DNA of 64,000 bases from CAYFZR01 sp046760505 [NCBI: Candidatus Hydrothermarchaeota archaeon] (GTDB taxonomy: Archaea > CAYFZR01): contig JBHIEG010000007.1 of NCBI GenBank assembly GCA_046760505.1, positions 17,577-81,576 on the forward strand, written 5' to 3'. Position numbers and translations under genes: made by a program. Below are positions 1 through 52,686 of this stretch, piece after piece; positions within the stretch are counted from its first letter, which is position 1, and each line of letters begins with the position of its first letter. The notes beneath the pieces are model-generated. The model was given only the letters and a program-made list of their open reading frames with translations. It made no database searches and was not told the origin of the DNA.

Positions 1-661
1 TGAGATAAGGTATCACGTCCTTTCCCACGTCCCTCACTCTGTCTCCCATCTCGTCGAAGACATCTTTTATCTCAGGCGAAAAGAGATATATAGCCGTATT
101 AACAAGTCTTGATGGTTCCTTGCCTTTTTTAGGTTTTTCGACAAACCTTATAATTCTATTGTCATCAGTAATCTCTGCAACTCCAAATTGAGAGATGGAT
201 TCTTGAGGTTCCAGTATTTTAAGTCCTATTGTGAGTAACGCATTCTTTTTCTTGTGAAACTCGAGCATTTCTCTAATTTCAATATCCACCACATTGTCAC
301 CGCTAACAACCAAAACATCTTCGTCGATATTGAAGTACTCCATGCAAAATCTAATCGCATCTCCACTTCCTTGATCATCGTATCTTGGTTGATATCGAAA
401 TTCTACTTCTTCGTCTAATCCCAATCTACCAGAAAAACCTTTTCCTTCTTTGAAATATTCTTTCAATCTGGTTGTATTGACATCGCCTTTGCTAGCAATG
501 TAAAACTCCCTGCACCCCTGATTTGCGAGACCCTCAAATAATATCGCTAAAATAGATTTGTTGCACATTTCTACAAGAGGTTTGGGCTGGTGAAGCGTTA
601 AAGGAAACAGTCTCGTCCCTCGCCCTCCTACGGTGGCAATTACAGGCGGCATTTCCTTCAT
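1..661 (-). CDS. Sugar-1-phosphate nucleotidylyltransferase, C-terminus cut by window edge
   Basis: Activates a sugar-1-phosphate with an NTP to give a nucleotide sugar (RmlA/GalU-like superfamily); the exact sugar cannot be told. My translation of the minus strand begins MKEMPPVIATVGGRGTRLFP and shows the family signature GGxGTRLxPLT followed by PKPL (about residues 11-28), then a GDN motif near residue 120 where the metal-binding GD(x) of the family lies, and an FVEKP motif further on. Start is the ATG whose complement is at 659-661; an in-frame ATG three codons later is possible. The C-terminal part lies beyond base 1. It heads or belongs to the nucleotide-sugar cluster on the same strand (724-4152), 62 bases upstream of which it sits in transcription order after the dehydrogenase. 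Confidence in family is high, in substrate low. Confidence 0.85.
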   Translation of the reverse strand, partial: MKEMPPVIATVGGRGTRLFPLTLHQPKPLVEMCNKSILAILFEGLANQGCREFYIASKGDVNTTRLKEYFKEGKGFSGRLGLDEEVEFRYQPRYDDQGSGDAIRFCMEYFNIDEDVLVVSGDNVVDIEIREMLEFHKKKNALLTIGLKILEPQESISQFGVAEITDDNRIIRFVEKPKKGKEPSRLVNTAIYLFSPEIKDVFDEMGDRVRDVGKDVIPYL

Positions 662-4324: not shown

Positions 4325-6091
4325 ATGGTAAAACTAACAGACACAATATTCAGGGATGCTCACCAGTCTCTTGCGGCAACAAGAATGAGAACAAGGCACA
4401 TGCTACCGTAGCAGAGAAACTGGATCAGGTTGGATTTTTCTCCCTCGGGGTATGGGGCGGCGCCACATTTGATTCATGTATAAGGTTTCTCAACGAGGAC
4501 CCGTGGGATAGAATTAAGTCTCTCAAAAAAGTTCTTAAGAATACGCCCATGCAGATGTTGCTTAGAGGTCAAAACCTAGTCGGCTACAGACATTATTCTG
4601 ATGATGTGGTTGAGAAGTTTATAGTTAATGCAGCGAAAAATGGAATAGACATATTCCGTATATTTGACGCCCTGAATGATATAAGAAACATGGAATTCTC
4701 CATAAGATTGCAAAGAGGGAGGCCGCACATGTACAGGGTTGTTACTGCTACACCATCAGCCCGGTTCATACTATGGAGAGAACTATTGAATTTTTCAAGG
4801 AATTAGCCTCTCTGGAAGTTGATTCTTTATGTATAAAAGACATGGCAGGACTTATTCGTCCAAAAATTGCTTACGACATGATAAAGAAGTTAAAAAAAGA
4901 AATCAACTTACCTATCGATTTACATTGCCATTGTACAGCGGGTCTAGCCCCAATTAGTTATTATGCTGCTTGTGAGGCAGGAGTGGACATATTAGATACG
5001 GCTATTTCACCATTTGGATGGGGCACTTCCCAACCTCCAAGAGAATCTATAGTCGCTGCCCTACAAGGTACCCCCTATGATACTGGTATAGACCTAGAGT
5101 CGCTTGTTGAAATAGCGAGTGACATCAAAAAGATAAGGGAAAAATACGCGCATCTCATAGTCCCTCTATCAGAGAGAGTTGATACCAGAGTTCTGGTTCA
5201 TCAGATACCGGGAGGCATGTTTTCCAATTTGATTTCTCAGCTGAAAGAGCAGAATACTATGGAAAAATTTGAAGATGTATTAAAAGAATTGCCTAGAACA
5301 AGGAAAGAACTGGGGTATCCTCCTTTAGTTACTCCTGCAAGTCAAATTGTAGGGATTCAAGCCGTTTTAAATGTCGTTTTGGATGAAAGATACAAGATGG
5401 TGCCAAAAGAGGTTAAAGATTACGTAAGAGGGCTATATGGTAAGACTCCCGCTCCGGTCGATGAAAAGATTAAAAAAATAATCATAGGAGATGAAAAACC
5501 TATAACCTCTAGGCCTGCAGATCTTTTAGAGCCGGAGTTGGATAAACTTACAGAGAGGCAAAAGAAAAGGGAATTCTACATAAAGAAGAGGATTTAATAA
5601 CCTACGCTTTGCATTCTCAAGCGGCTGAGAAATTTCTAAGAGGAGAATTAATAGAAGAGCCTCTGGAACCTGTTGAAGAGGTACGAACACCCGAGATTAT
5701 AAGTCCTGAAGCCGGTCCGGTGAGAGAATTCAAGGTTATTATTGACGATAAGCCTTACAAAATAAGGTTACAGGAGTTTGAGGCCGAACCATCTGTAAGA
5801 GAAGAAGTTTTATTGGCGAAGGAGAAGACAGTTAGTCCAGAAATCACGGTTCCAAAGGCTAAAGAAGTATCTCTGCCTGATGGAGAAATAACAAGCCACA
5901 TGCAGGGAACAATAATAAGGATAAATGTTAATGTTGGGGATTTCGTAAATGAAGGCGATGTGCTAGCGGTATTGGAAGCAATGAAGATGGAGAACGATAT
6001 AGTAGCGATAAGGTCAGGAACAGTCAGTAAGATACATGTTTCTGTGAATCAAACCGTAACTAAAGGAACACCCTTATTTCTAATATCGTAG
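4325..6091 (+). pseudogene. pycB: Pyruvate carboxylase subunit B / oxaloacetate decarboxylase alpha-type carboxyltransferase with biotin domain, three frameshifts
   Basis: The pieces together match archaeal PycB: a carboxyltransferase barrel starting MVKLTDTIFRDAHQS at 4325, then MLLRGQNLVGYRHYSDDVVE (from about 4555), then CIKDMAGLIRPK and TAISPFGWGTSQPP (from about 4833), and finally a biotinyl domain with the EAMKMEND motif near 5979-6000. The reading frame changes three times. Frame starting 4325 meets a stop at 4409 while the homologous text continues from GCA at 4411; it shifts again at about 4705-4707; and again at about 5580-5582, where the earlier frame stops at 5595. Each change is what the loss of one base would give. 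Between the shifts the protein is well conserved. Intact, it would carboxylate pyruvate with a separate biotin carboxylase (one is at 14907-16397). Real decay, or sequence errors clustered in one gene, are both possible; neighbouring genes are not affected. Confidence 0.85.
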
Positions 6092-44236: not shown

Positions 44237-45241
44237 ATGTTTGAGCAGTTGAGAGAAGTAATTTTAGAAAAAATTAGACAGGGTATAGATCCCTTGGGAA
44301 AAATAATCGGTCAGGAAGAGGCTAAGGAAGGAATACTAGCAGCTTTGCTTGTAGGACATCATATTCTGATTGAAGGCCCTCCAGGGGTAGGTAAGACCAC
44401 TCTGGCAAAGGAAGTTGCAAAACTTTTGCCACCGATAAAAGTCGTTAAGGGGTGCCCCTATAACTGTGATCCTGAAGAGCCTGTTTGCCCCCTGTGCAAG
44501 CAGAAAAAAGACTTTGAAATCGAGGAAATTGCTGGAATAAAGAGGTTTGTCCGAATTCAGGGTTCTCCAGATCTTACTGCAGAGGATCTTCTCGGAGACA
44601 TTGATCCTCCGATGGCATTCAAGTATGGACCCCAAGACTACAGGGCATTTACTCCCGGAAAACTTCTCAAAGGAAATAGAGGGGTTATATTCTTCGATGA
44701 ACTCAACAGAGTCCCAGAAAAGTTGCAGAATGCTTTACTTCAAGTATTGGAGGAGGGAATAGCTACCATAGGTCCCTACGACGTTGACTATCCCTCCAAT
44801 TTTATAATGATCGCAACCATGAATCCTGCTGAGCACGCTGGAGTGGAAGAACTCTCAGACGTTTTGCTTGATAGGTTTGATATGGTAAGAATGGGGCATC
44901 CTGTTTCCATAGAAGAGGAAAAGAGAATCGTGCTGGAAAACGCCCGTGATATAGGCGTTAAAGTCAAACCTGAGTTGATGGACGAATTACTCAAAATAGT
45001 TAGGGCTACAAGGGAGGATGAAGAAATTTCCCAGGGAGCAAGCGTTAGAGCGAGCATAAGTTTATACGAAAAGGCTCAGGCCAGGGCTCTTATGCATGGA
45101 AGAAGAGAGGTGACCAGAGAAGACATAATGGAAATGGCTCCTTCCGTACTACTTAAACGCATAAAACCCGCTCCAGAATCTCCTTACTTTGAAGATCCCT
45201 TGCCTCTCGTGATAAGGAAGATAGATGAGGTAATGGGCTAA
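44237..45241 (+). CDS. MoxR/NorQ/ChlI-type AAA+ ATPase with four-cysteine insertion
   Basis: 334 residues. Walker A GPPGVGKTT (47-55), Walker B VIFFDELNR (about 148-156), sensor/arginine region DRFDMVRM (about 213-220) and a helical lid. Right after Walker A it has an insertion with C-x3-C-x6-C-x2-C (Cys73, 77, 84, 87), which would bind zinc or another metal; the next protein has the same motif. Known relatives (NorQ, CbbQ, BchI, MoxR) work with a VWA protein to insert metals or remodel enzymes. Its stop is directly followed by the start of the AAA+-VWA gene. TATA and palindrome upstream. Confidence 0.85.
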   Translation: MFEQLREVILEKIRQGIDPLGKIIGQEEAKEGILAALLVGHHILIEGPPGVGKTTLAKEVAKLLPPIKVVKGCPYNCDPEEPVCPLCKQKKDFEIEEIAGIKRFVRIQGSPDLTAEDLLGDIDPPMAFKYGPQDYRAFTPGKLLKGNRGVIFFDELNRVPEKLQNALLQVLEEGIATIGPYDVDYPSNFIMIATMNPAEHAGVEELSDVLLDRFDMVRMGHPVSIEEEKRIVLENARDIGVKVKPELMDELLKIVRATREDEEISQGASVRASISLYEKAQARALMHGRREVTREDIMEMAPSVLLKRIKPAPESPYFEDPLPLVIRKIDEVMG

Positions 45242-47563
45242 ATGGGTATAAGAAAAGATATAAGGAATGTATTGAGGGAAAGAGAAGAAGAATTATTTGA
45301 AGGACTTTACTTGCCAGTGGATTTCAAGGAAGATGTCCTGACTAGTCTTTTCGCTGGGCACAACATAATCCTCGCTGGACCTCCAGGAACAGGAAAGACA
45401 AGTATTGCCTTAAATCTATCAAAAATGCTCCCTGATATTAAAGTAGTTAGAGGCTGTCCAGTTAATTGTCTTTTTGAAAATCCAACATGTCCATTTTGCA
45501 AAAAATTAGGAAAAATGGAGCCAGAGATCATAAAGGGAAGCGAGAGGATGGTGAGAATACAGGGAAGCGCAGAAATGGTTCCTGAAGATCTAATAGGAGA
45601 CTTCGATCCAAAAGTGACTCTTGAAGAGGGCTTCACCTTGGAAGCCTTTCATCCAGGAAAACTCTTTAAAGCCAATAATGGCATATTGATGGTAGATTTC
45701 ATTGATAGAATGCCTGAGAGAGTAATAAATACCCTATTATCTAGCCTCGAGGAAGGATACGCTGTTCCACGGTTAGAAGAATTCTTCAAATTGGATTTTT
45801 TAATTATCGCCACGAGCGGAATTAAAACTCTAGATAGGCTGCCAGATGATTTGATAGATAGATTCGATGTAATAAAAATGGACTACATAGAGACAAAATA
45901 TGAAAAAGAGCTTTTTCTCGAGCGTGCAAAGGGTGTAAAAAAAGACCTCGTGGAGTTATATGCTAAACTAATTGGAGATACTCGTTCTCACTCAGATGTT
46001 CTAAGAGGGGTTAGTACAAGAGGCGGTTTAAGGTTTTTTGAGTTGTTGAGCATACTGCCCACCCTAAATCAAAGGGATGAAATTACCATAGAAGACGTAA
46101 AAAAGGCAATGTACATGACTCTAAGACACAGAATGAAAGTAAAACCTTATACCAAGGCAGAAATCGTTTTAAAAGACATAATGGATGATTTACTTGGTGA
46201 ATATAAAGAGAAAGGACCAATAACAGATGCTGACGTTATCAGTATAATAGAGGAAATAGCCTCTGATCCAAGCCTTCAGAGACCACTTAAGTATGGATTC
46301 TCAGATATTTTACTCAAAAGACTGAGTCAGAGACCTTCTTCTACATTAAGTTTAATTCAGCAGAGAATTGCAAAAGATTTGGAATATAAGGTAAGATTTG
46401 CTCCAGACCAGGCTGAAAAAATGAAGATAACGCAGGATACAGTTTTAGAATTAAGGAAAGAACTCAAAGAAAAAGCACTGGAGATGTTGTTGGATATTCT
46501 GGAAGTAAAAGGAGTTTTGAAGAAAGAAGTACGCGGCTATTCTTTTGGTGCCCAAGCCGCGAATTATTTCTTGGAGATGCTCATGGCGGACTGGACCTAT
46601 TTACCCTCTACTTACTATGGAGAGCACAGCACAGGAGTTAGAGCACCTTATGGCGAGGGAAAGATAGTAGGGACGAGAAAGTACAGATTTGGAGACAGAT
46701 ATCGAGACATAGCCTTTAGAGATACCATAATGCACGCAATAAAGGCAAAAAGAAAAAAGGTTGAGAGTGAGGACATCCAGGTCTATCAAAAAGATGTAAA
46801 ATCGAGAGTAGATATAGTACTCGCAATAGATACATCTGGAACCATGGAACAAGGGAAAAAACTATTCCAAGCTAAAAAGGCTGCAAGCGCCTTATCTCTT
46901 GCTAGCGCAAACTTTGGAGACAGAGTAGGCGTGGTGTCTTTCTCAGAGGATGCAGAAATCGTATGTAGGCTTACTGATAATCCAAACAAGTTAACCAGCG
47001 CGATATTAGATCTTACTGTATTCTCGAGAGGTGCGAGAACAAACATAGGAAGTGCTCTGATAAAATCTAGAGAACTGTTCAGTAAGTATGGGAGATCAAC
47101 TGCTACGAGACACATAGTCCTAATAACAGATGGAGATCCTACAGCTCCTCTTCCTAACCCAAGAGGATATGCTGTAAGGCAAGCAGTCATCTCAGCCAGG
47201 AGAGGCATTACAATATCGGGAGCATGCATTTTGCATGGAACTACTGAGCCGGAGTTTCTAAGAAGACTTACCAAGATTGGGAAGGGAAGAATATACGGTA
47301 TAGCGGAAGAAGCATTACCAGAAACAATACTAAGGGAGCATGCCATTTTAAGGGGTTTAAAAATACCCACAAAAATAGAGGAGCCGATAAAAAAGTCCAT
47401 AATCGATGTTTTAAGTAAAGAAGGACCCGTTACCCTAACTGTGCTTGCTAAAAAGATGGGAGAATCTTTAAGAGATGTTTCTAAAGCGGTAGAAGAATTG
47501 GAAAAAGAAGGATTGGTCTCCCATAAGTTGGTGAAAGACATAAAGGTTTATCACTTAATATAG
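45242..47563 (+). CDS. AAA+ and VWA fusion protein (ChlD/BchD/NorD-like) with winged-helix end
   Basis: 773 residues. Domains: AAA+ (about 25-300) with Walker A GPPGTGKTS (46-54) and Walker B ILMVDFIDR, in which the catalytic Glu after Asp is Phe, so ATP hydrolysis is probably lost as in magnesium-chelatase BchD; the cysteine insertion C-x3-C-x6-C-x2-C (Cys72, 76, 83, 86); a helical, partly acidic middle region; VWA domain (about 520-700) with the complete MIDAS start DTSGT; and a winged-helix-like end (about 705-773). Forms a complex with the preceding ATPase. A chelatase or NorQ/NorD-type maturation role is inferred; no ChlH/CobN-like subunit is in the window. Confidence 0.83.
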   Translation: MGIRKDIRNVLREREEELFEGLYLPVDFKEDVLTSLFAGHNIILAGPPGTGKTSIALNLSKMLPDIKVVRGCPVNCLFENPTCPFCKKLGKMEPEIIKGSERMVRIQGSAEMVPEDLIGDFDPKVTLEEGFTLEAFHPGKLFKANNGILMVDFIDRMPERVINTLLSSLEEGYAVPRLEEFFKLDFLIIATSGIKTLDRLPDDLIDRFDVIKMDYIETKYEKELFLERAKGVKKDLVELYAKLIGDTRSHSDVLRGVSTRGGLRFFELLSILPTLNQRDEITIEDVKKAMYMTLRHRMKVKPYTKAEIVLKDIMDDLLGEYKEKGPITDADVISIIEEIASDPSLQRPLKYGFSDILLKRLSQRPSSTLSLIQQRIAKDLEYKVRFAPDQAEKMKITQDTVLELRKELKEKALEMLLDILEVKGVLKKEVRGYSFGAQAANYFLEMLMADWTYLPSTYYGEHSTGVRAPYGEGKIVGTRKYRFGDRYRDIAFRDTIMHAIKAKRKKVESEDIQVYQKDVKSRVDIVLAIDTSGTMEQGKKLFQAKKAASALSLASANFGDRVGVVSFSEDAEIVCRLTDNPNKLTSAILDLTVFSRGARTNIGSALIKSRELFSKYGRSTATRHIVLITDGDPTAPLPNPRGYAVRQAVISARRGITISGACILHGTTEPEFLRRLTKIGKGRIYGIAEEALPETILREHAILRGLKIPTKIEEPIKKSIIDVLSKEGPVTLTVLAKKMGESLRDVSKAVEELEKEGLVSHKLVKDIKVYHLI

Positions 47564-49440: not shown

Positions 49441-49566
49441 ATGAGTATGAATAAATGCCTGAACTGCGGCAACACAAGCGAGGAGATCCCTCTAATAAAA
49501 TGTGAGGTAAAGGGCGAGCAGAAGTGGGTATGTGTTAAATGCTTGCCAGTTTTAATTCATGGGTAG
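49441..49566 (+). CDS. 41-residue zinc-ribbon protein
   Basis: Encodes MSMNKCLNCGNTSEEIPLIK and then CEVKGEQKWVCVKC-type sequence, ending at TAG 49564-49566. Two CxxC pairs (CLNC and CVKC) plus one further cysteine make a zinc-ribbon or rubredoxin-like knuckle. It lies between the palindrome and the CGGC-domain gene, whose start overlaps its stop by eight bases, which supports translation. A TATA-like element 22-30 bases ahead of the ATG predicts a leaderless message. Function unknown; too short for most gene finders. Confidence 0.6.
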   Translation: MSMNKCLNCGNTSEEIPLIKCEVKGEQKWVCVKCLPVLIHG

Positions 49567-50101
49567 TCCTATGGAGTGGGAAGAGGAAGCGTTAAAGTTG
49601 TTGGAAAAAGTGCCAGAATTCGCCAGAAGCAAGGCAAAGGAGATAGTAGAGTCCATCGCTTTAGAGAAGGGAAAGGAAAGAATCTCTCTAAAAGATGTGG
49701 AAGATGCTTATAATCTCCAATTCGGAGAGGATTCTAAAAAGATCGCTATAATCCGATGTGATATCATATCTGAGGTCTGTCCGGGAGTTGGCTGCCTTAT
49801 AGCCTATGAAAACAGAAAAGAGTTATTCAAAGATTATGGACCGGATACAAAAATCGTTGGCTTTTTTACGTGTGGAGGGTGTCCGGGAAGGAGGGTATTT
49901 CGTCTTGTCAATACTCTAAAGAGATACGGAATTAATGCGGTGCACATGAGTTCTTGCATGCTGATGGAAGAGCCTTTTACCAAGTGTCCTTACAAAGATG
50001 AGATAAAAAAATCGATAGAAAGCCAAGGAATAGTTGTGATCGAAGGAACTCATCATGAAGTGGGCCAGTATGCTCATGGATCGAGATATCACATGAAATA
50101 A
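49559..50101 (+). CDS. PCP_red and CGGC domain protein
   Basis: 180 residues. The first 52 (WEEEALKLLEKVPEFARSKA and following) match the small PCP_red helical domain known from protochlorophyllide-reductase-related subunits and other redox proteins. The rest has IIRCDIISEVCPGVGC and FFTCGGCPGRR, the CGGC motif of a small cysteine-rich domain thought to bind metal, then SSCMLMEEPFTKCP and a HHEVGQYAHGSRYH histidine-rich end. ATG 49571 is an alternative start. Member of the palindrome-linked group; likely an electron or metal carrier. Confidence 0.72.
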   Translation: MGSPMEWEEEALKLLEKVPEFARSKAKEIVESIALEKGKERISLKDVEDAYNLQFGEDSKKIAIIRCDIISEVCPGVGCLIAYENRKELFKDYGPDTKIVGFFTCGGCPGRRVFRLVNTLKRYGINAVHMSSCMLMEEPFTKCPYKDEIKKSIESQGIVVIEGTHHEVGQYAHGSRYHMK

Positions 50102-50209: not shown

Positions 50210-50395
50210 ATGGAAATCACGGAAAAAATGACGGTTGCCGAAACCATAAGGAGGTATCCAAAGTCAAAGAGCGTGCTCCTCAGACACGGAATATGTGATT
50301 GCTGTGGAGGCAATATCACCATCGAGAGAGCCGCGAGAATAAGAGACTTAAACATCGATGAATTTATGAAAGAATTGAGAGGAGCGATAGAATGA
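50210..50395 (+). CDS. DUF1858 domain protein
   Basis: 61-residue helical protein: MTVAETIRRYPKSKSVLLRH then GICDCCGG, the standard DUF1858 form also found at the N-terminus of ScdA/YtfE-type di-iron repair proteins. The two cysteines next to glycines could ligate a metal or cluster. Its stop overlaps the start of the MIP18-like gene (50392-50395). First gene of the palindrome-controlled operon. Confidence 0.85.
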   Translation: MEITEKMTVAETIRRYPKSKSVLLRHGICDCCGGNITIERAARIRDLNIDEFMKELRGAIE

Positions 50396-50673
50396 ATTTA
50401 GAAGGAAAGATAATCAAAAAATTAAAAGAAATAAAGGATCCACATACCGGAAAAAGTGTTTATGACATGAATATGATAGAAAATTTAGAGGTCAAAGAAG
50501 ATAAAGTAAGATTGAATTTCAGACCCACAAGCCCATTTTGCCCTATTGGAATTCAATTAGCAACTGCCATTAAGAAGGGATTAAAAGAAATTGAGGAGAT
50601 AAAAAGCATAGATCTGAAAGTAGTAGGATATGTTAAGGAGAAAGAAGTTAACGAAATCTTGAAAAAGATATGA
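50392..50673 (+). CDS. MIP18/PaaD-family (DUF59) protein
   Basis: 93 residues: IIKKLKEIKDPHTGKSVYDM, then VKEDKVRLNFRPTSPFCPIG with the single conserved cysteine, and a helical pair. DUF59 proteins assist iron-sulfur cluster assembly or delivery. Coupled by overlap with the DUF1858 gene; supports a metal-centre maturation theme for the operon. Confidence 0.85.
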   Translation: MNLEGKIIKKLKEIKDPHTGKSVYDMNMIENLEVKEDKVRLNFRPTSPFCPIGIQLATAIKKGLKEIEEIKSIDLKVVGYVKEKEVNEILKKI

Positions 50674-50737: not shown

Positions 50738-51919
50738 ATGATCAAAAATCTTACCGTAAGATTCTTTTCATGCTCAATTTTTTATCTTTTATTATCGGTT
50801 ACGCTGGGAGTGGCATTAGCCGCGGGATTTTTATCCAGGAATGCAATACCTGCGCACGCGCATCTTGCTTTAATTGGCTGGGTTTCTATCACGATAATTG
50901 GGGCCATGTATCAGTTGGTCCCTACTATACGTGGAACTGAACTTTTTAGCGAGAAGTTAGCGAACTTGCAGTTCTGGATGATAAACATCGGTACGATGGG
51001 TCTTTTTTTGGGGTTATTGCTTGAAAATTTTTGGATGAAAGTATTTTTTGGCTTTTTGTTACTGGTATCGTCTTATATTTTTGCGTATATTATATTTAAG
51101 ACTTTATTTTCAATAAAAGAAAGAATAGAATTGACCTTAAGATTTTTTGGCATCGCAATCCTATACTTTTTGATAGCGATAACATTGGGTTTGCTCATGA
51201 TCGCTAATGTTATACCTAATTTTTTGGGCGCGCATGCGCATCTAGCCCTGATTGGTTGGGTTTCCCTCACGATAATGGGTGCGGAATATCAGATGGTACC
51301 GATGCTTGCCCTAAAAGAACTTTACAGCGAAAAACTATCGAACATACAATTCTGGATGGTTAACTCGGGGGCAATAGGAATTTTCTTTGCTTTTGTAATT
51401 TCTAGCAAAATCTTGATAGGTTTATTTGGTGGTGTATTTTTTATATCTTCACTCATTTTTGCATGGATAATTTATAAAACGCTGACACAAGATAAAAAAA
51501 TGCAGGAAAAGGTGGATATTAGTGTTAAATTCTTCTTAACCGCCATTATCTACTTGTTGATAGCAAGCATTCTTGGACTTTTTTTGCCTTTTGGAATTTT
51601 ATACCTCAAAATCGCCCACGTACATCTAGCCTTGGTTGGGTGGGTATCGCTCACAATAATTGGAGGAATGTACCATATCATGCCCATGCTCGTATGGATG
51701 GAAAAATACGGTGAAAAACTTGGAAAAGAACCTATTCCCATGATAAAAGACATGTACAGTGAGAGGCTGGCAAATTCCATCCTCTGGATGGTTAATGCAG
51801 GTACCATAGGCATGTTTTTCGGTGCAATCTTTGGAAAATTATTTTTGCTATCTGGAATTATAATAGCCTTGGCATCCTATCTCTTTGCCTTTGATATGTT
51901 TAATGTGCTACGGAGATAG
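50738..51919 (+). CDS. Heme-copper-oxidase-like membrane protein made of three 4-helix repeats
   Basis: 393 residues, about 12 transmembrane helices in three repeats of about 126-128 residues. Each repeat has a helix ending in HxHLALxGWVSxTIxG followed by xYxxxP (His40/His42, His166/His168, His294/His296), then SE(K/R)L(A/S)N and a WM(I/V)NxG helix (71-85, 197-211, 341-355). That motif matches helix X of cbb3-type CcoN/NorB-like subunit I, with its heme-ligating HxH, G-W and Y-x3-P. The HH pair of the copper/iron-B site in helix VII is not present. So it probably binds hemes, up to three HxH sites, but may not be a terminal oxidase. The third repeat has a 16-residue insertion before its SERLAN. 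Start ATG 50738 follows GGGAGA. Confidence 0.85.
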   Translation: MIKNLTVRFFSCSIFYLLLSVTLGVALAAGFLSRNAIPAHAHLALIGWVSITIIGAMYQLVPTIRGTELFSEKLANLQFWMINIGTMGLFLGLLLENFWMKVFFGFLLLVSSYIFAYIIFKTLFSIKERIELTLRFFGIAILYFLIAITLGLLMIANVIPNFLGAHAHLALIGWVSLTIMGAEYQMVPMLALKELYSEKLSNIQFWMVNSGAIGIFFAFVISSKILIGLFGGVFFISSLIFAWIIYKTLTQDKKMQEKVDISVKFFLTAIIYLLIASILGLFLPFGILYLKIAHVHLALVGWVSLTIIGGMYHIMPMLVWMEKYGEKLGKEPIPMIKDMYSERLANSILWMVNAGTIGMFFGAIFGKLFLLSGIIIALASYLFAFDMFNVLRR

Positions 51920-52227: not shown

Positions 52228-52686
52228 GTGATGTCAGTGTTGGGAATTGGAGAGAAGGAGGTAAAAATCTTCCTGTTCATTCTTTTACTTTCTACAGGAT
52301 GCATTCATAAGGAAAAGACTCCAACTCTAAATTCTGTTCATCTAAAGGTTATTGGAGAATCTTTTATGGGGGTTCAGTATAAAAAAGAAGTTACACTCAT
52401 CCATGAAGACTTAGGATATGCATTGAAATATTCTTGTGAGGCGAGAGAGGGATTTGAAAACTTTTGCGAATGTAAAGAAGTGGAAAAAGTGGTAGAAGAA
52501 AGTACGGTAGATCAGTTTCTGAAACTACTGGATAGTCTTAGAGATGAAGGAGAAGAAGCCAAGTGTTGTGATCATCCATGGTCTGAGATTGAAGTCACCT
52601 ACTCAAATGGGAGCGGTAAAAAGATTGCAGTAAGTTTTCCAGTGGAAGTTGAGAAAATCTTTAATATTGATTGTTTGAAATCTTGA
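52228..52686 (+). CDS. Lipoprotein-like small exported protein
   Basis: About 152 residues or slightly fewer. Near the start EVKIFLFILLLSTGCIHKEK has a hydrophobic stretch and an LSTGC lipobox, followed by a Thr/Asn-containing mature part with cysteine pairs ENFCECKEV and EEAKCCDHPW and a last DCLKS. GTG at 52228 is taken as start; a GGAGG at 52256-52260 sits too close to the signal to pick a better codon, and TTG at 52240 is possible. Ten bases after the regulator, perhaps same operon. Function unknown. Confidence 0.6.
   Translation: MMSVLGIGEKEVKIFLFILLLSTGCIHKEKTPTLNSVHLKVIGESFMGVQYKKEVTLIHEDLGYALKYSCEAREGFENFCECKEVEKVVEESTVDQFLKLLDSLRDEGEEAKCCDHPWSEIEVTYSNGSGKKIAVSFPVEVEKIFNIDCLKS

What the first reader, a model, noticed from the sequence alone, without database searches (positions are those of the whole stretch)
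50738..51919. A heme-copper-oxidase-like protein that is an explicit three-fold repeat
Seen: three 126-128-residue repeats each carrying HxHLALxGWVSxTI, YxxxP, SExLxN and WMxNxG motifs (His40/42, 166/168, 294/296). Known: subunit I of heme-copper oxidases has 12 helices with pseudo-three-fold symmetry and heme/metal His ligands in helices II, VI and X, but sequence repeats are no longer evident there. Here they are strong even at the DNA level (compare 50848-50905, 51225-51285 and 51609-51668), which implies recent duplication, gene conversion, or retention of an ancestral form. The HH pair of the copper site is absent.
Basis: partly seen in the sequence, partly recalled or inferred. Interest (0 to 1): 0.85.

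Follow-up and report, generated by a model that had tools for sequence, protein, structure and literature searches.

The report
Threefold-repeat relative of respiratory oxidases
A probably archaeal gene encodes a membrane protein with the fold of the respiratory oxidases, still visibly built from three copies of one four-helix unit and lacking the copper site; it probably holds heme for redox or nitric-oxide handling and resembles what the ancestor of these enzymes may have looked like.

Summary
Window 50738-51919 (+) encodes 393 aa: three four-helix units, 42-49% identical, each with HxHLALxGWVS. The AlphaFold model (pLDDT 93.5) has the heme-copper-oxidase (HCO) fold, in CcoN's order (VIA-align Z 42.0, rmsd 2.3 A, 374 residues). 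It has seven histidines and no HH pair, hence no copper-B (CuB) site.

The repeats are not recent: codons at matched residues are no more alike than expected, and unit 3 of the 13 proteins tested forms one group. Homologues occur in 16 of 23 genomes of one archaeal phylum, and in Elusimicrobia, Thermus, rhizobia, Aliarcobacter and haloarchaea; single-unit proteins exist too.

By HCO symmetry six histidines would pair between neighbouring units as three bis-His heme sites (inferred; no coordinates). Six are kept in 24 of 25 archaeal proteins. All 44 proteins surveyed keep H42 and H166, facing the pore without heme in true HCOs. Neighbours elsewhere include NO and redox genes.

Four-helix units and three-unit homologues were published by Pei et al. 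2014 (reference seen, content recalled). This is an unusually symmetric new variant, most likely a heme protein and not an oxidase.

The parts
50738..51919 (+). Three-unit HCO-homology membrane protein, 393 aa, 12 predicted TM helices
   Evidence: AF2 model pLDDT 93.5, pTM 0.92; HCO fold Z 42.0; Pfam COX1 E 5.4e-29 with 3 stretches
50750..51130 (+). Unit 1 (residues 5-131), equivalent to HCO helices I-IV
   Evidence: H40 aligns with NorB His53 (hhalign 96.7%) and, weakly (22.0%), with the CcoN helix-II His
51131..51517 (+). Unit 2 (residues 132-260), equivalent to HCO helices V-VIII; the HH pair of CuB is absent
   Evidence: unit 2 against CcoN third 2 hhalign 39.9%
51518..51916 (+). Unit 3 (residues 261-393), equivalent to HCO helices IX-XII
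   Evidence: H294/H296 align with CcoN His409/411, Paracoccus numbering (95.6%) and, weakly (8.1%), with NorB His326/328
50855..50881 (+). HAHLALIGW of unit 1: H40 (site A), H42 (site C)
   Evidence: H42 in 44 of 44 and H40 in 27 of 44 proteins surveyed
51233..51259 (+). HAHLALIGW of unit 2: H166 (site C), H168 (site B, the CuB-ligand position of CcoN)
   Evidence: H166 in 44 of 44, H168 in 37 of 44; H168 = CcoN His271 (Paracoccus numbering) by gapless extension of the alignment
51617..51643 (+). HVHLALVGW of unit 3: H294 (site B), H296 (site A)
   Evidence: H294 in 24 of 44, H296 in 26 of 44
51695..51742 (+). About 16-residue insertion of unit 3 (WMEKYGEKLGKEPIP region), with counterparts of varying length in the homologues of alignment A3
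50392..50673 (+). DUF59 / FeS_assembly_P (SufT/PaaD-like) gene 64 nt upstream; same kind of neighbour in some other members
   Evidence: Pfam PF01883 E 8.8e-14; neighbours
49559..50101 (+). PCP_red + CGGC domain protein; homologue directly beside the three-unit gene in L072 and L074
51925..52218 (+). ArsR-type winged-helix gene starting 5 nt after the stop; probable operon partner or regulator
52228..52686 (+). Small lipoprotein-like ORF (152 aa, label by eye) 9 nt further on; no Pfam match at E 0.001

Best explanation
It is a three-unit homologue of HCO/NOR subunit I that never had, or has lost, the copper or iron-B (FeB) site, and works as a membrane b-type heme protein rather than an oxidase. 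Shown: the ORF, the old repeats, the predicted HCO fold in register with CcoN, the ligand inventory, and conservation in archaea and bacteria. Inferred: each heme is held between the second His of one unit and the first His of the next. That gives site A = H40+H296 (the low-spin heme site of HCOs), site B = H168+H294 (in place of the heme-CuB centre) and site C = H42+H166 (the pore without a cofactor in HCOs). Archaeal members could hold up to three hemes; the bacterial ones keep a full pair only at site C. Most likely role: electron transfer to, or binding and removal of, nitric oxide and related stress molecules, drawing on the quinol pool or a c-type cytochrome. The role in the window's own organism is the least certain step.
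For: Fold: window model Z 42.0, rmsd 2.3, 374 residues against CcoN 8smr_E, and Z 39.5 against cNOR 4xyd; the bacterial homologue P0007 also, Z 39.1. Register: the structural match runs 1..393 on 10..462 without permutation; H40 aligns with the NorB helix-II His at 96.7% and H294/H296 with the two CcoN helix-X His at 95.6%; H168 with the CuB-ligand His by gapless extension only. No HH pair. His survey: H42 and H166 in 44 of 44; all six in 24 of 25 archaeal and 0 of 19 other rows. Redox neighbours: a c cytochrome with 8 CxxCH directly beside the gene in 5 of 16 archaeal loci of the window's type (Pfam multihaem match run for L067), and NorB plus a cytochrome c two and three genes away in L070. 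NO link: the Ensifer gene lies between a nor operon with hemN and NnrS with nirK, with DUF2249 and DUF59 beside it; Thermus has DUF2249, protoglobin and DUF59 beside it; S. meliloti pSymA has DUF2249 on both sides, with NorB and NnrS homologues in the same 21 kb.
Against: No heme has been shown in any member here. The pairing at sites B and C rests on threefold symmetry and on recalled HCO structures; the model's coordinates could not be opened and no distance was measured. Sequence alone does not fix the register: all three units score best with CcoN third 3 and with NorB third 1, and the only significant phmmer hit puts unit 1 on CcoN helix X. In the 18 kb around the gene searched with seed proteins no NorB, NnrS or DUF2249 was found, and no ORF of the window list has more than one CxxCH, so the NO/redox link is by analogy. 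Neighbours differ between clades, which could mean different roles; the five loci with the cytochrome c look like close relatives, and 6 of 11 bacterial chromosomal loci had neither DUF59 nor DUF2249 at E 1e-4.
Confidence: 0.6

Rival explanations
1. It is a true but divergent terminal oxidase or NO reductase that uses another metal site at the pore-B position.
For: HCO fold; helix-X ligand positions and one CuB-position His (H168) are present.
Against: No HH pair and no further His except H313; no Tyr in residues 201-260 except Y246; no cytochrome c or CuA-type match among the neighbours scanned beside the window gene; the bacterial rows lack the helix-X ligands (the haloarchaeal plasmid row Halorhabdus keeps one His there).
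Confidence: 0.08
2. It is a gas (NO, CO or O2) sensor or a buffer that signals to the neighbouring ArsR-type protein or through DUF2249 proteins, not an electron carrier.
For: An HTH gene follows 5 nt downstream in the window; DrpA and DrpB of Thermus, called DUF2249 proteins in PMC11218638, were proposed as nitrate sensors (passages of PMC6282519); a MarR/DUF7343-type regulator follows the gene in L067.
Against: No signalling domain in the protein; bis-His six-coordinate sites bind gas only after losing a ligand (established knowledge); multiheme cytochrome c beside the gene in one clade points to electrons.
Confidence: 0.15
3. It is a heme transport, delivery or assembly factor (for NOR, or for the DUF59/CGGC metal-cluster system) rather than a redox enzyme.
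For: Neighbours include Fe-S assembly-type DUF59, CGGC and, in Ensifer, hemN; a MoxR ATPase plus VWA protein pair lies 3 kb upstream in the window.
Against: Intramembrane bis-His pairs in the HCO core look like stable prosthetic heme sites (inference); I know of no carrier with this fold (recalled).
Confidence: 0.12
4. The repeats are a recent in-frame triplication and the resemblance to HCO is incidental.
For: Visible DNA repeats.
Against: Codon identity at chance level; unit 3 is one group in 13 proteins; same architecture in 44 proteins of archaea and bacteria; Z 42 fold match.
Confidence: 0.02

Closest known systems
Three-unit HCO-homology (HCOH) proteins with single-unit relatives, Pei, Li, Kinch and Grishin 2014, Protein Sci 23:1220 (PMC4243994; not held; reference seen; content recalled)
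   Same: Four-helix evolutionary units, three per protein, most like HCO helices IX-XII, denitrification/NO neighbourhoods, single-unit proteins thought to trimerise. The relatives found here (bacterial three-unit proteins, single-unit proteins) are of this kind.
   Different: As recalled, most three-unit HCOH proteins keep two His and could bind one heme. The archaeal set here keeps six His in overt repeats. Whether that set, or the H42/H166 pair, was in the paper could not be checked.
CcoN, subunit I of cbb3 oxidase (8smr_E, 3mk7)
   Same: Best fold and sequence match; same helix-X ligand positions, and helix-II position weakly.
   Different: No HH pair for CuB, 393 instead of about 470 residues, His added at H42 and H166, overt repeats, no CcoO/CcoP-like match among the window neighbours scanned.
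cNOR subunit NorB (4xyd, 3o0r)
   Same: Fold (Z 39.5 and 37.2); helix-II ligand position (96.7%), helix-X positions weakly; genomic company in Ensifer and L070.
   Different: No FeB ligands; in Ensifer and L070 NorB is separately encoded nearby, so this is not the catalytic subunit there.
NnrS (PF05940)
   Same: 12-helix NO-stress membrane protein (recalled), coded near the Ensifer and S. meliloti members.
   Different: Window protein has no Pfam NnrS match at E up to 1; hhalign probability 3% against two NnrS proteins.
Single-unit four-helix HCO homologues (Thermus WP_014511218, Priestia WP_099000146 'cytochrome-c oxidase', Elusimicrobia L055-L057)
   Same: Same HxH unit; COX1 profile match in the helix IX-XII part, above cut-off for the two Elusimicrobia proteins scanned and below it for Thermus and Priestia; one lies beside a weak DUF2249 match (L083, E 4e-6) and the Thermus one near a nitrite reductase.
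   Different: One unit per gene; would need to assemble as trimers (inference).

Membership tests
Catalytic HCO/NOR subunit I | 12-helix subunit-I fold with pseudo-threefold arrangement | tested here: met
   predicted model: Z 42.0 to CcoN over residues 1-393; 12 long helices
Catalytic HCO/NOR subunit I | Low-spin heme bis-His ligands in helices II and X | tested here: met
   sequence level only: H40 with NorB His53 (96.7%), H296 with CcoN His411 (95.6%)
Catalytic HCO/NOR subunit I | High-spin heme proximal His in helix X | tested here: met
   H294 with CcoN His409, Paracoccus numbering (95.6%); sequence level only
Catalytic HCO/NOR subunit I | CuB/FeB ligands: His of helix VI plus HH pair of helix VII | tested here: not met
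   H168 falls at the helix-VI position by gapless extension, but the protein has only 7 His and no HH
Catalytic HCO/NOR subunit I | Catalysis of O2 or NO reduction | not testable with these tools
   needs purified protein
Three-unit HCOH proteins (Pei et al. 2014; definition recalled) | Three homologous four-helix units with HCO homology outside the catalytic families | tested here: met
Three-unit HCOH proteins (Pei et al. 2014; definition recalled) | Denitrification or NO-related gene context (family level) | tested here: met
   Ensifer, S. meliloti, Thermus, L070; not seen in the 18 kb around the window gene
Three-unit HCOH proteins (Pei et al. 2014; definition recalled) | Only two conserved His, one heme (recalled as typical of 'most' members, not a strict definition) | tested here: not met
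   window and 23 further archaeal rows keep six; two (H42, H166) are common to all 44 rows. This marks a variant
NnrS (PF05940) | Match to the Pfam NnrS profile above its cut-off | tested here: not met
   no match at E up to 1; best of the relatives scanned E 0.0018, 18.1 of 28 bits
ccoN equivalog (TIGR00780) | Curated whole-protein cut-off 583 bits | tested here: not met
   72.6 bits

The most novel reading that the evidence does not exclude
The archaeal proteins are living near-symmetric forms of the HCO ancestor: a triheme b cytochrome with one bis-His heme in each of the three pores, including the third pore that known oxidases leave without a heme. Oxidases would then have arisen by losing site C and turning site B into the heme-copper centre, while the bacterial relatives took the opposite course and kept only site C complete.
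Probability: 0.3. Interest if true: 0.8.

Novelty: new variant of a known kind. Interest (0 to 1): 0.52.

Why it matters
The origin of the heme-copper oxidases, the enzymes of aerobic respiration, is usually argued from structures in which the ancestral threefold symmetry is visible only in outline. A natural protein that still carries three like units with all six ligand positions filled makes the triplication idea directly testable: heme number, sites and redox properties can be measured and single sites removed. The consistently kept H42+H166 pair predicts a heme in a pore where none is known in oxidases. It would also give a first biochemical handle on a family that recurs beside NO-handling genes and is annotated 'hypothetical protein' in 5 of the 6 plasmid records used here, the sixth having no gene table for the stretch.

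Tried and rejected
Recent triplication: rejected by the codon test and the unit tree. Concerted evolution in the window gene: column counts for units 1 and 2 against L001 were 10 concerted to 3 positional, but only L001's own units 1+2 form a starred clade, so nothing is claimed for the window. Circularly permuted alignments as a search profile: MAFFT aligned them by identity, so the three repeats alone were used (A2). Global hhalign of the archaeal family against CcoN slid by one unit, and the one against NorB covered only units 1 and 2; replaced by unit-wise comparison and the structural match. In the unit-wise comparison all three units score best with CcoN third 3 (95.0, 97.1, 95.6%) and with NorB third 1 (96.7, 95.5, 87.6%), so the own-third pairings are partly weak: unit 1 with CcoN third 1 22.0%, unit 2 with CcoN third 2 39.9% (starting after the His, so H168 = CuB-ligand His is gapless extension), unit 2 with NorB third 2 0.2%, unit 3 with NorB third 3 8.1%. 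The 144-aa open frame in G004:C34 looked like a single-unit archaeal protein but is the cut start of a true HCO at a contig end. Viral contigs: no relatives in two scans. Phylum of G010: 1 of 100 genomes at E 1e-8, G010 itself. The window's lineage: MetK is 63% identical to G025 of the L001 phylum and 44-49% to the 15 other genomes with a match, 7 of 23 having none; other phyla were not compared, so the placement is tentative.

Rows left out of the 44-row His survey: duplicates of the same gene seen through two tools, the contig-end fragment L040, the distant L041/L051, the HCO-like L042, L052 and L053, and single-unit proteins. The six plasmid rows were picked by hand: five (Natrononativus, Thermus, Ensifer, Halorhabdus, S. 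meliloti) out of 188 records, and Aliarcobacter out of 2 records. Some archaeal rows are close relatives of each other.

Full report
What is there. The ORF at 50738-51919 (+) encodes 393 aa. Alignment scores are 317, 232 and 225 against shuffled maxima of 65-68. Each unit alone matches Pfam COX1 in its last third (profile 342-399, 342-401, 311-401), the third unit just under the cut-off. The protein has seven His: 40, 42, 166, 168, 294, 296 and 313.

Age of the repeats. The repeats are visible in DNA, but at positions with the same residue identical codons are 23 of 58, 14 of 44 and 13 of 46, with 21.1, 15.1 and 15.8 expected from the window's codon usage. DNA likeness is therefore a by-product of protein conservation. 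In a tree of 39 units from 13 archaeal proteins plus 4 single-unit proteins, unit 3 forms one group (90/94), unit 1 needs two changes and unit 2 four; the one within-protein pair is L001 units 1+2 (99/92), a sign of gene conversion in that relative. An insertion in unit 3, of varying length, is shared by the archaeal and bacterial rows of A3. The triplication is old; the window gene keeps it unusually legibly.

Fold. AlphaFold2 with 12 sequences gives pLDDT 93.5 and pTM 0.92 with 12 long helices. Foldseek's best hits are cbb3 CcoN, then NOR, then other HCOs. VIA-align gives Z 42.0, rmsd 2.3 and 374 aligned residues to 8smr_E, residues 1-393 on 10-462, so the units lie in HCO order. The Elusimicrobia homologue P0007, pLDDT 85.5, gives Z 39.1, rmsd 2.7, 387 residues.

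Ligand positions. Unit-wise profile alignment puts H40 on the NorB helix-II His (96.7%) and, weakly, on that of CcoN (22.0%); it puts H294/H296 on the two helix-X His of CcoN (95.6%) and, weakly, of NorB (8.1%). H168 falls on the helix-VI CuB ligand of CcoN by gapless extension of a 39.9% match. Sequence alone would allow other registers, since all three units score best with CcoN third 3 and with NorB third 1, and the only significant phmmer hit puts unit 1 on CcoN helix X; the order is fixed by the structural match. From recalled HCO structures, helix X's second His and helix II's His hold the low-spin heme, and helix X's first His holds the high-spin heme opposite the CuB site. Applying the threefold rotation, each pore receives the second His of one unit and the first of the next: A = H40+H296, B = H168+H294, C = H42+H166. 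C is the pore without a cofactor in known HCOs (recalled). This pairing is inference; no coordinates could be opened and no distance was measured.

Conservation. In 44 three-unit proteins (17 archaeal of the window type, 8 of a second archaeal type, 13 bacterial chromosomal, 6 plasmid-borne, of which two are haloarchaeal) H42 and H166 are present in 44 of 44. H168 is in 37, H40 in 27, H296 in 26 and H294 in 24. All six occur in 24 of 25 of the first two groups (exception L039) and 0 of 19 others. The rows are not independent, but they span archaea and bacteria.

Distribution. A scan of the genome-contig collection with two strict peptide patterns gave 15 loci: five archaeal (Euryarchaeota, Hydrothermarchaeota, Pyrohabitans or just 'archaeon' in the titles), eight titled Elusimicrobia and two titled only 'bacterium'. 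In the phylum of L001's genome, 19 of 23 genomes have some match, 16 of 23 a near full-length one at E of 1e-50 or better; some weak matches look like ordinary HCOs. In the Elusimicrobia phylum sample 5 of 149 match, three of them single-unit proteins. tblastn on plasmids finds 188 records with the L001 protein, 67 with one place covering at least 80% of it; how many of the rest are ordinary HCOs was not checked. Single-unit proteins occur in Thermus and Priestia.

Neighbours (with seed proteins at E 1e-4; and record annotations). Window: CGGC/PCP_red, DUF59, the three-unit gene, ArsR-type HTH, small ORF, with gaps of 290, 64, 5 and 9 nt. Of 16 archaeal loci of this type examined (window included), 5 have an 8-CxxCH cytochrome directly beside the gene, 3 (window, L072, L074) a CGGC homologue next to it or one gene away, 1 (L070) NorB and a cytochrome c two and three genes away, and 1 (the window) DUF59. 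Of 4 loci of the second archaeal type, 2 have DUF59. Of 11 bacterial chromosomal loci, 5 (L006-L009, L011) have DUF59 or DUF2249 next to the gene or within two genes; 6 had neither. Of 6 plasmid loci, 5 have DUF59 or DUF2249 nearby. Ensifer shows nor operon - hemN - DUF2249 - gene - DUF2249 - DUF59 - NnrS - nirK, and Thermus shows DUF2249, DUF2249, hypothetical, protoglobin, gene, DUF59. In the 18 kb around the window gene no NorB, NnrS or DUF2249 homologue was found, and no ORF of the window list has more than one CxxCH.

Literature. PMC11218638 (passages) says that DUF2249 is associated with the HCO superfamily, citing Pei et al. 2014, and reports four DUF2249 genes of H. mediterranei activated under denitrifying conditions. 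PMC6282519 (passages) proposes Thermus DrpA and DrpB as nitrate sensors. PMC4602095 (passages) notes that YgdD and MAPEG homotrimers resemble the HCO core, citing Pei et al. PMC6759336 (passages) reports NOR without NirS/NirK, and multiheme cytochromes, in Hydrothermarchaeota genomes. Pei et al. itself is not held; my account of it is recalled. Ten searches showed, among the titles and abstract beginnings they listed, no three-heme or six-His HCO homologue; this does not show that none is in print.

Verdict. Most likely it is a membrane b-heme protein for redox or NO handling. How many hemes it binds, and whether one sits in the third pore, is the testable question.

Noticed in passing
window 44237-45241 and 45242-47563: MoxR/Mg-chelatase-type AAA ATPase followed by an AAA+VWA protein with a weak C-terminal HTH match; such pairs insert metals elsewhere (e.g. 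NorQ/NorD, recalled). The second has only partial matches, in 11 of 23 genomes of the group searched.
   Followed up: partly
window 4549-4806, 4773-5597, 5609-6091: Three consecutive ORFs that by eye look like pieces of one biotin-dependent carboxylase/decarboxylase subunit, possibly a frameshift or split gene (no search run).
   Followed up: no
L077, L078, L079, L080 (G019, G021, G020, G016): A second, diverged six-His three-unit family in the same archaea; in L077 and L079 it has a DUF59 gene on one side and a 1045-1046-aa gene on the other (in L079 with a 199-aa ORF between).
   Followed up: partly
L001:3249-4448: Units 1 and 2 are 59% identical to each other, more than either is to its counterpart in the window protein (45-47%), suggesting gene conversion between units.
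   Followed up: partly
L059:9112-10296 (Natrononativus plasmid): A second ORF weakly similar to the window protein (E 7e-7), two genes from the first, annotated hypothetical.
   Followed up: no
L062:7917-8294 (Thermus SG0.5JP17-16 plasmid): Single-unit HxH protein beside DUF542 and AraC-type-ligand-binding-domain genes, a few genes from 'cbb3-type subunit I', cytochrome c and nitrite reductase genes.
   Followed up: partly
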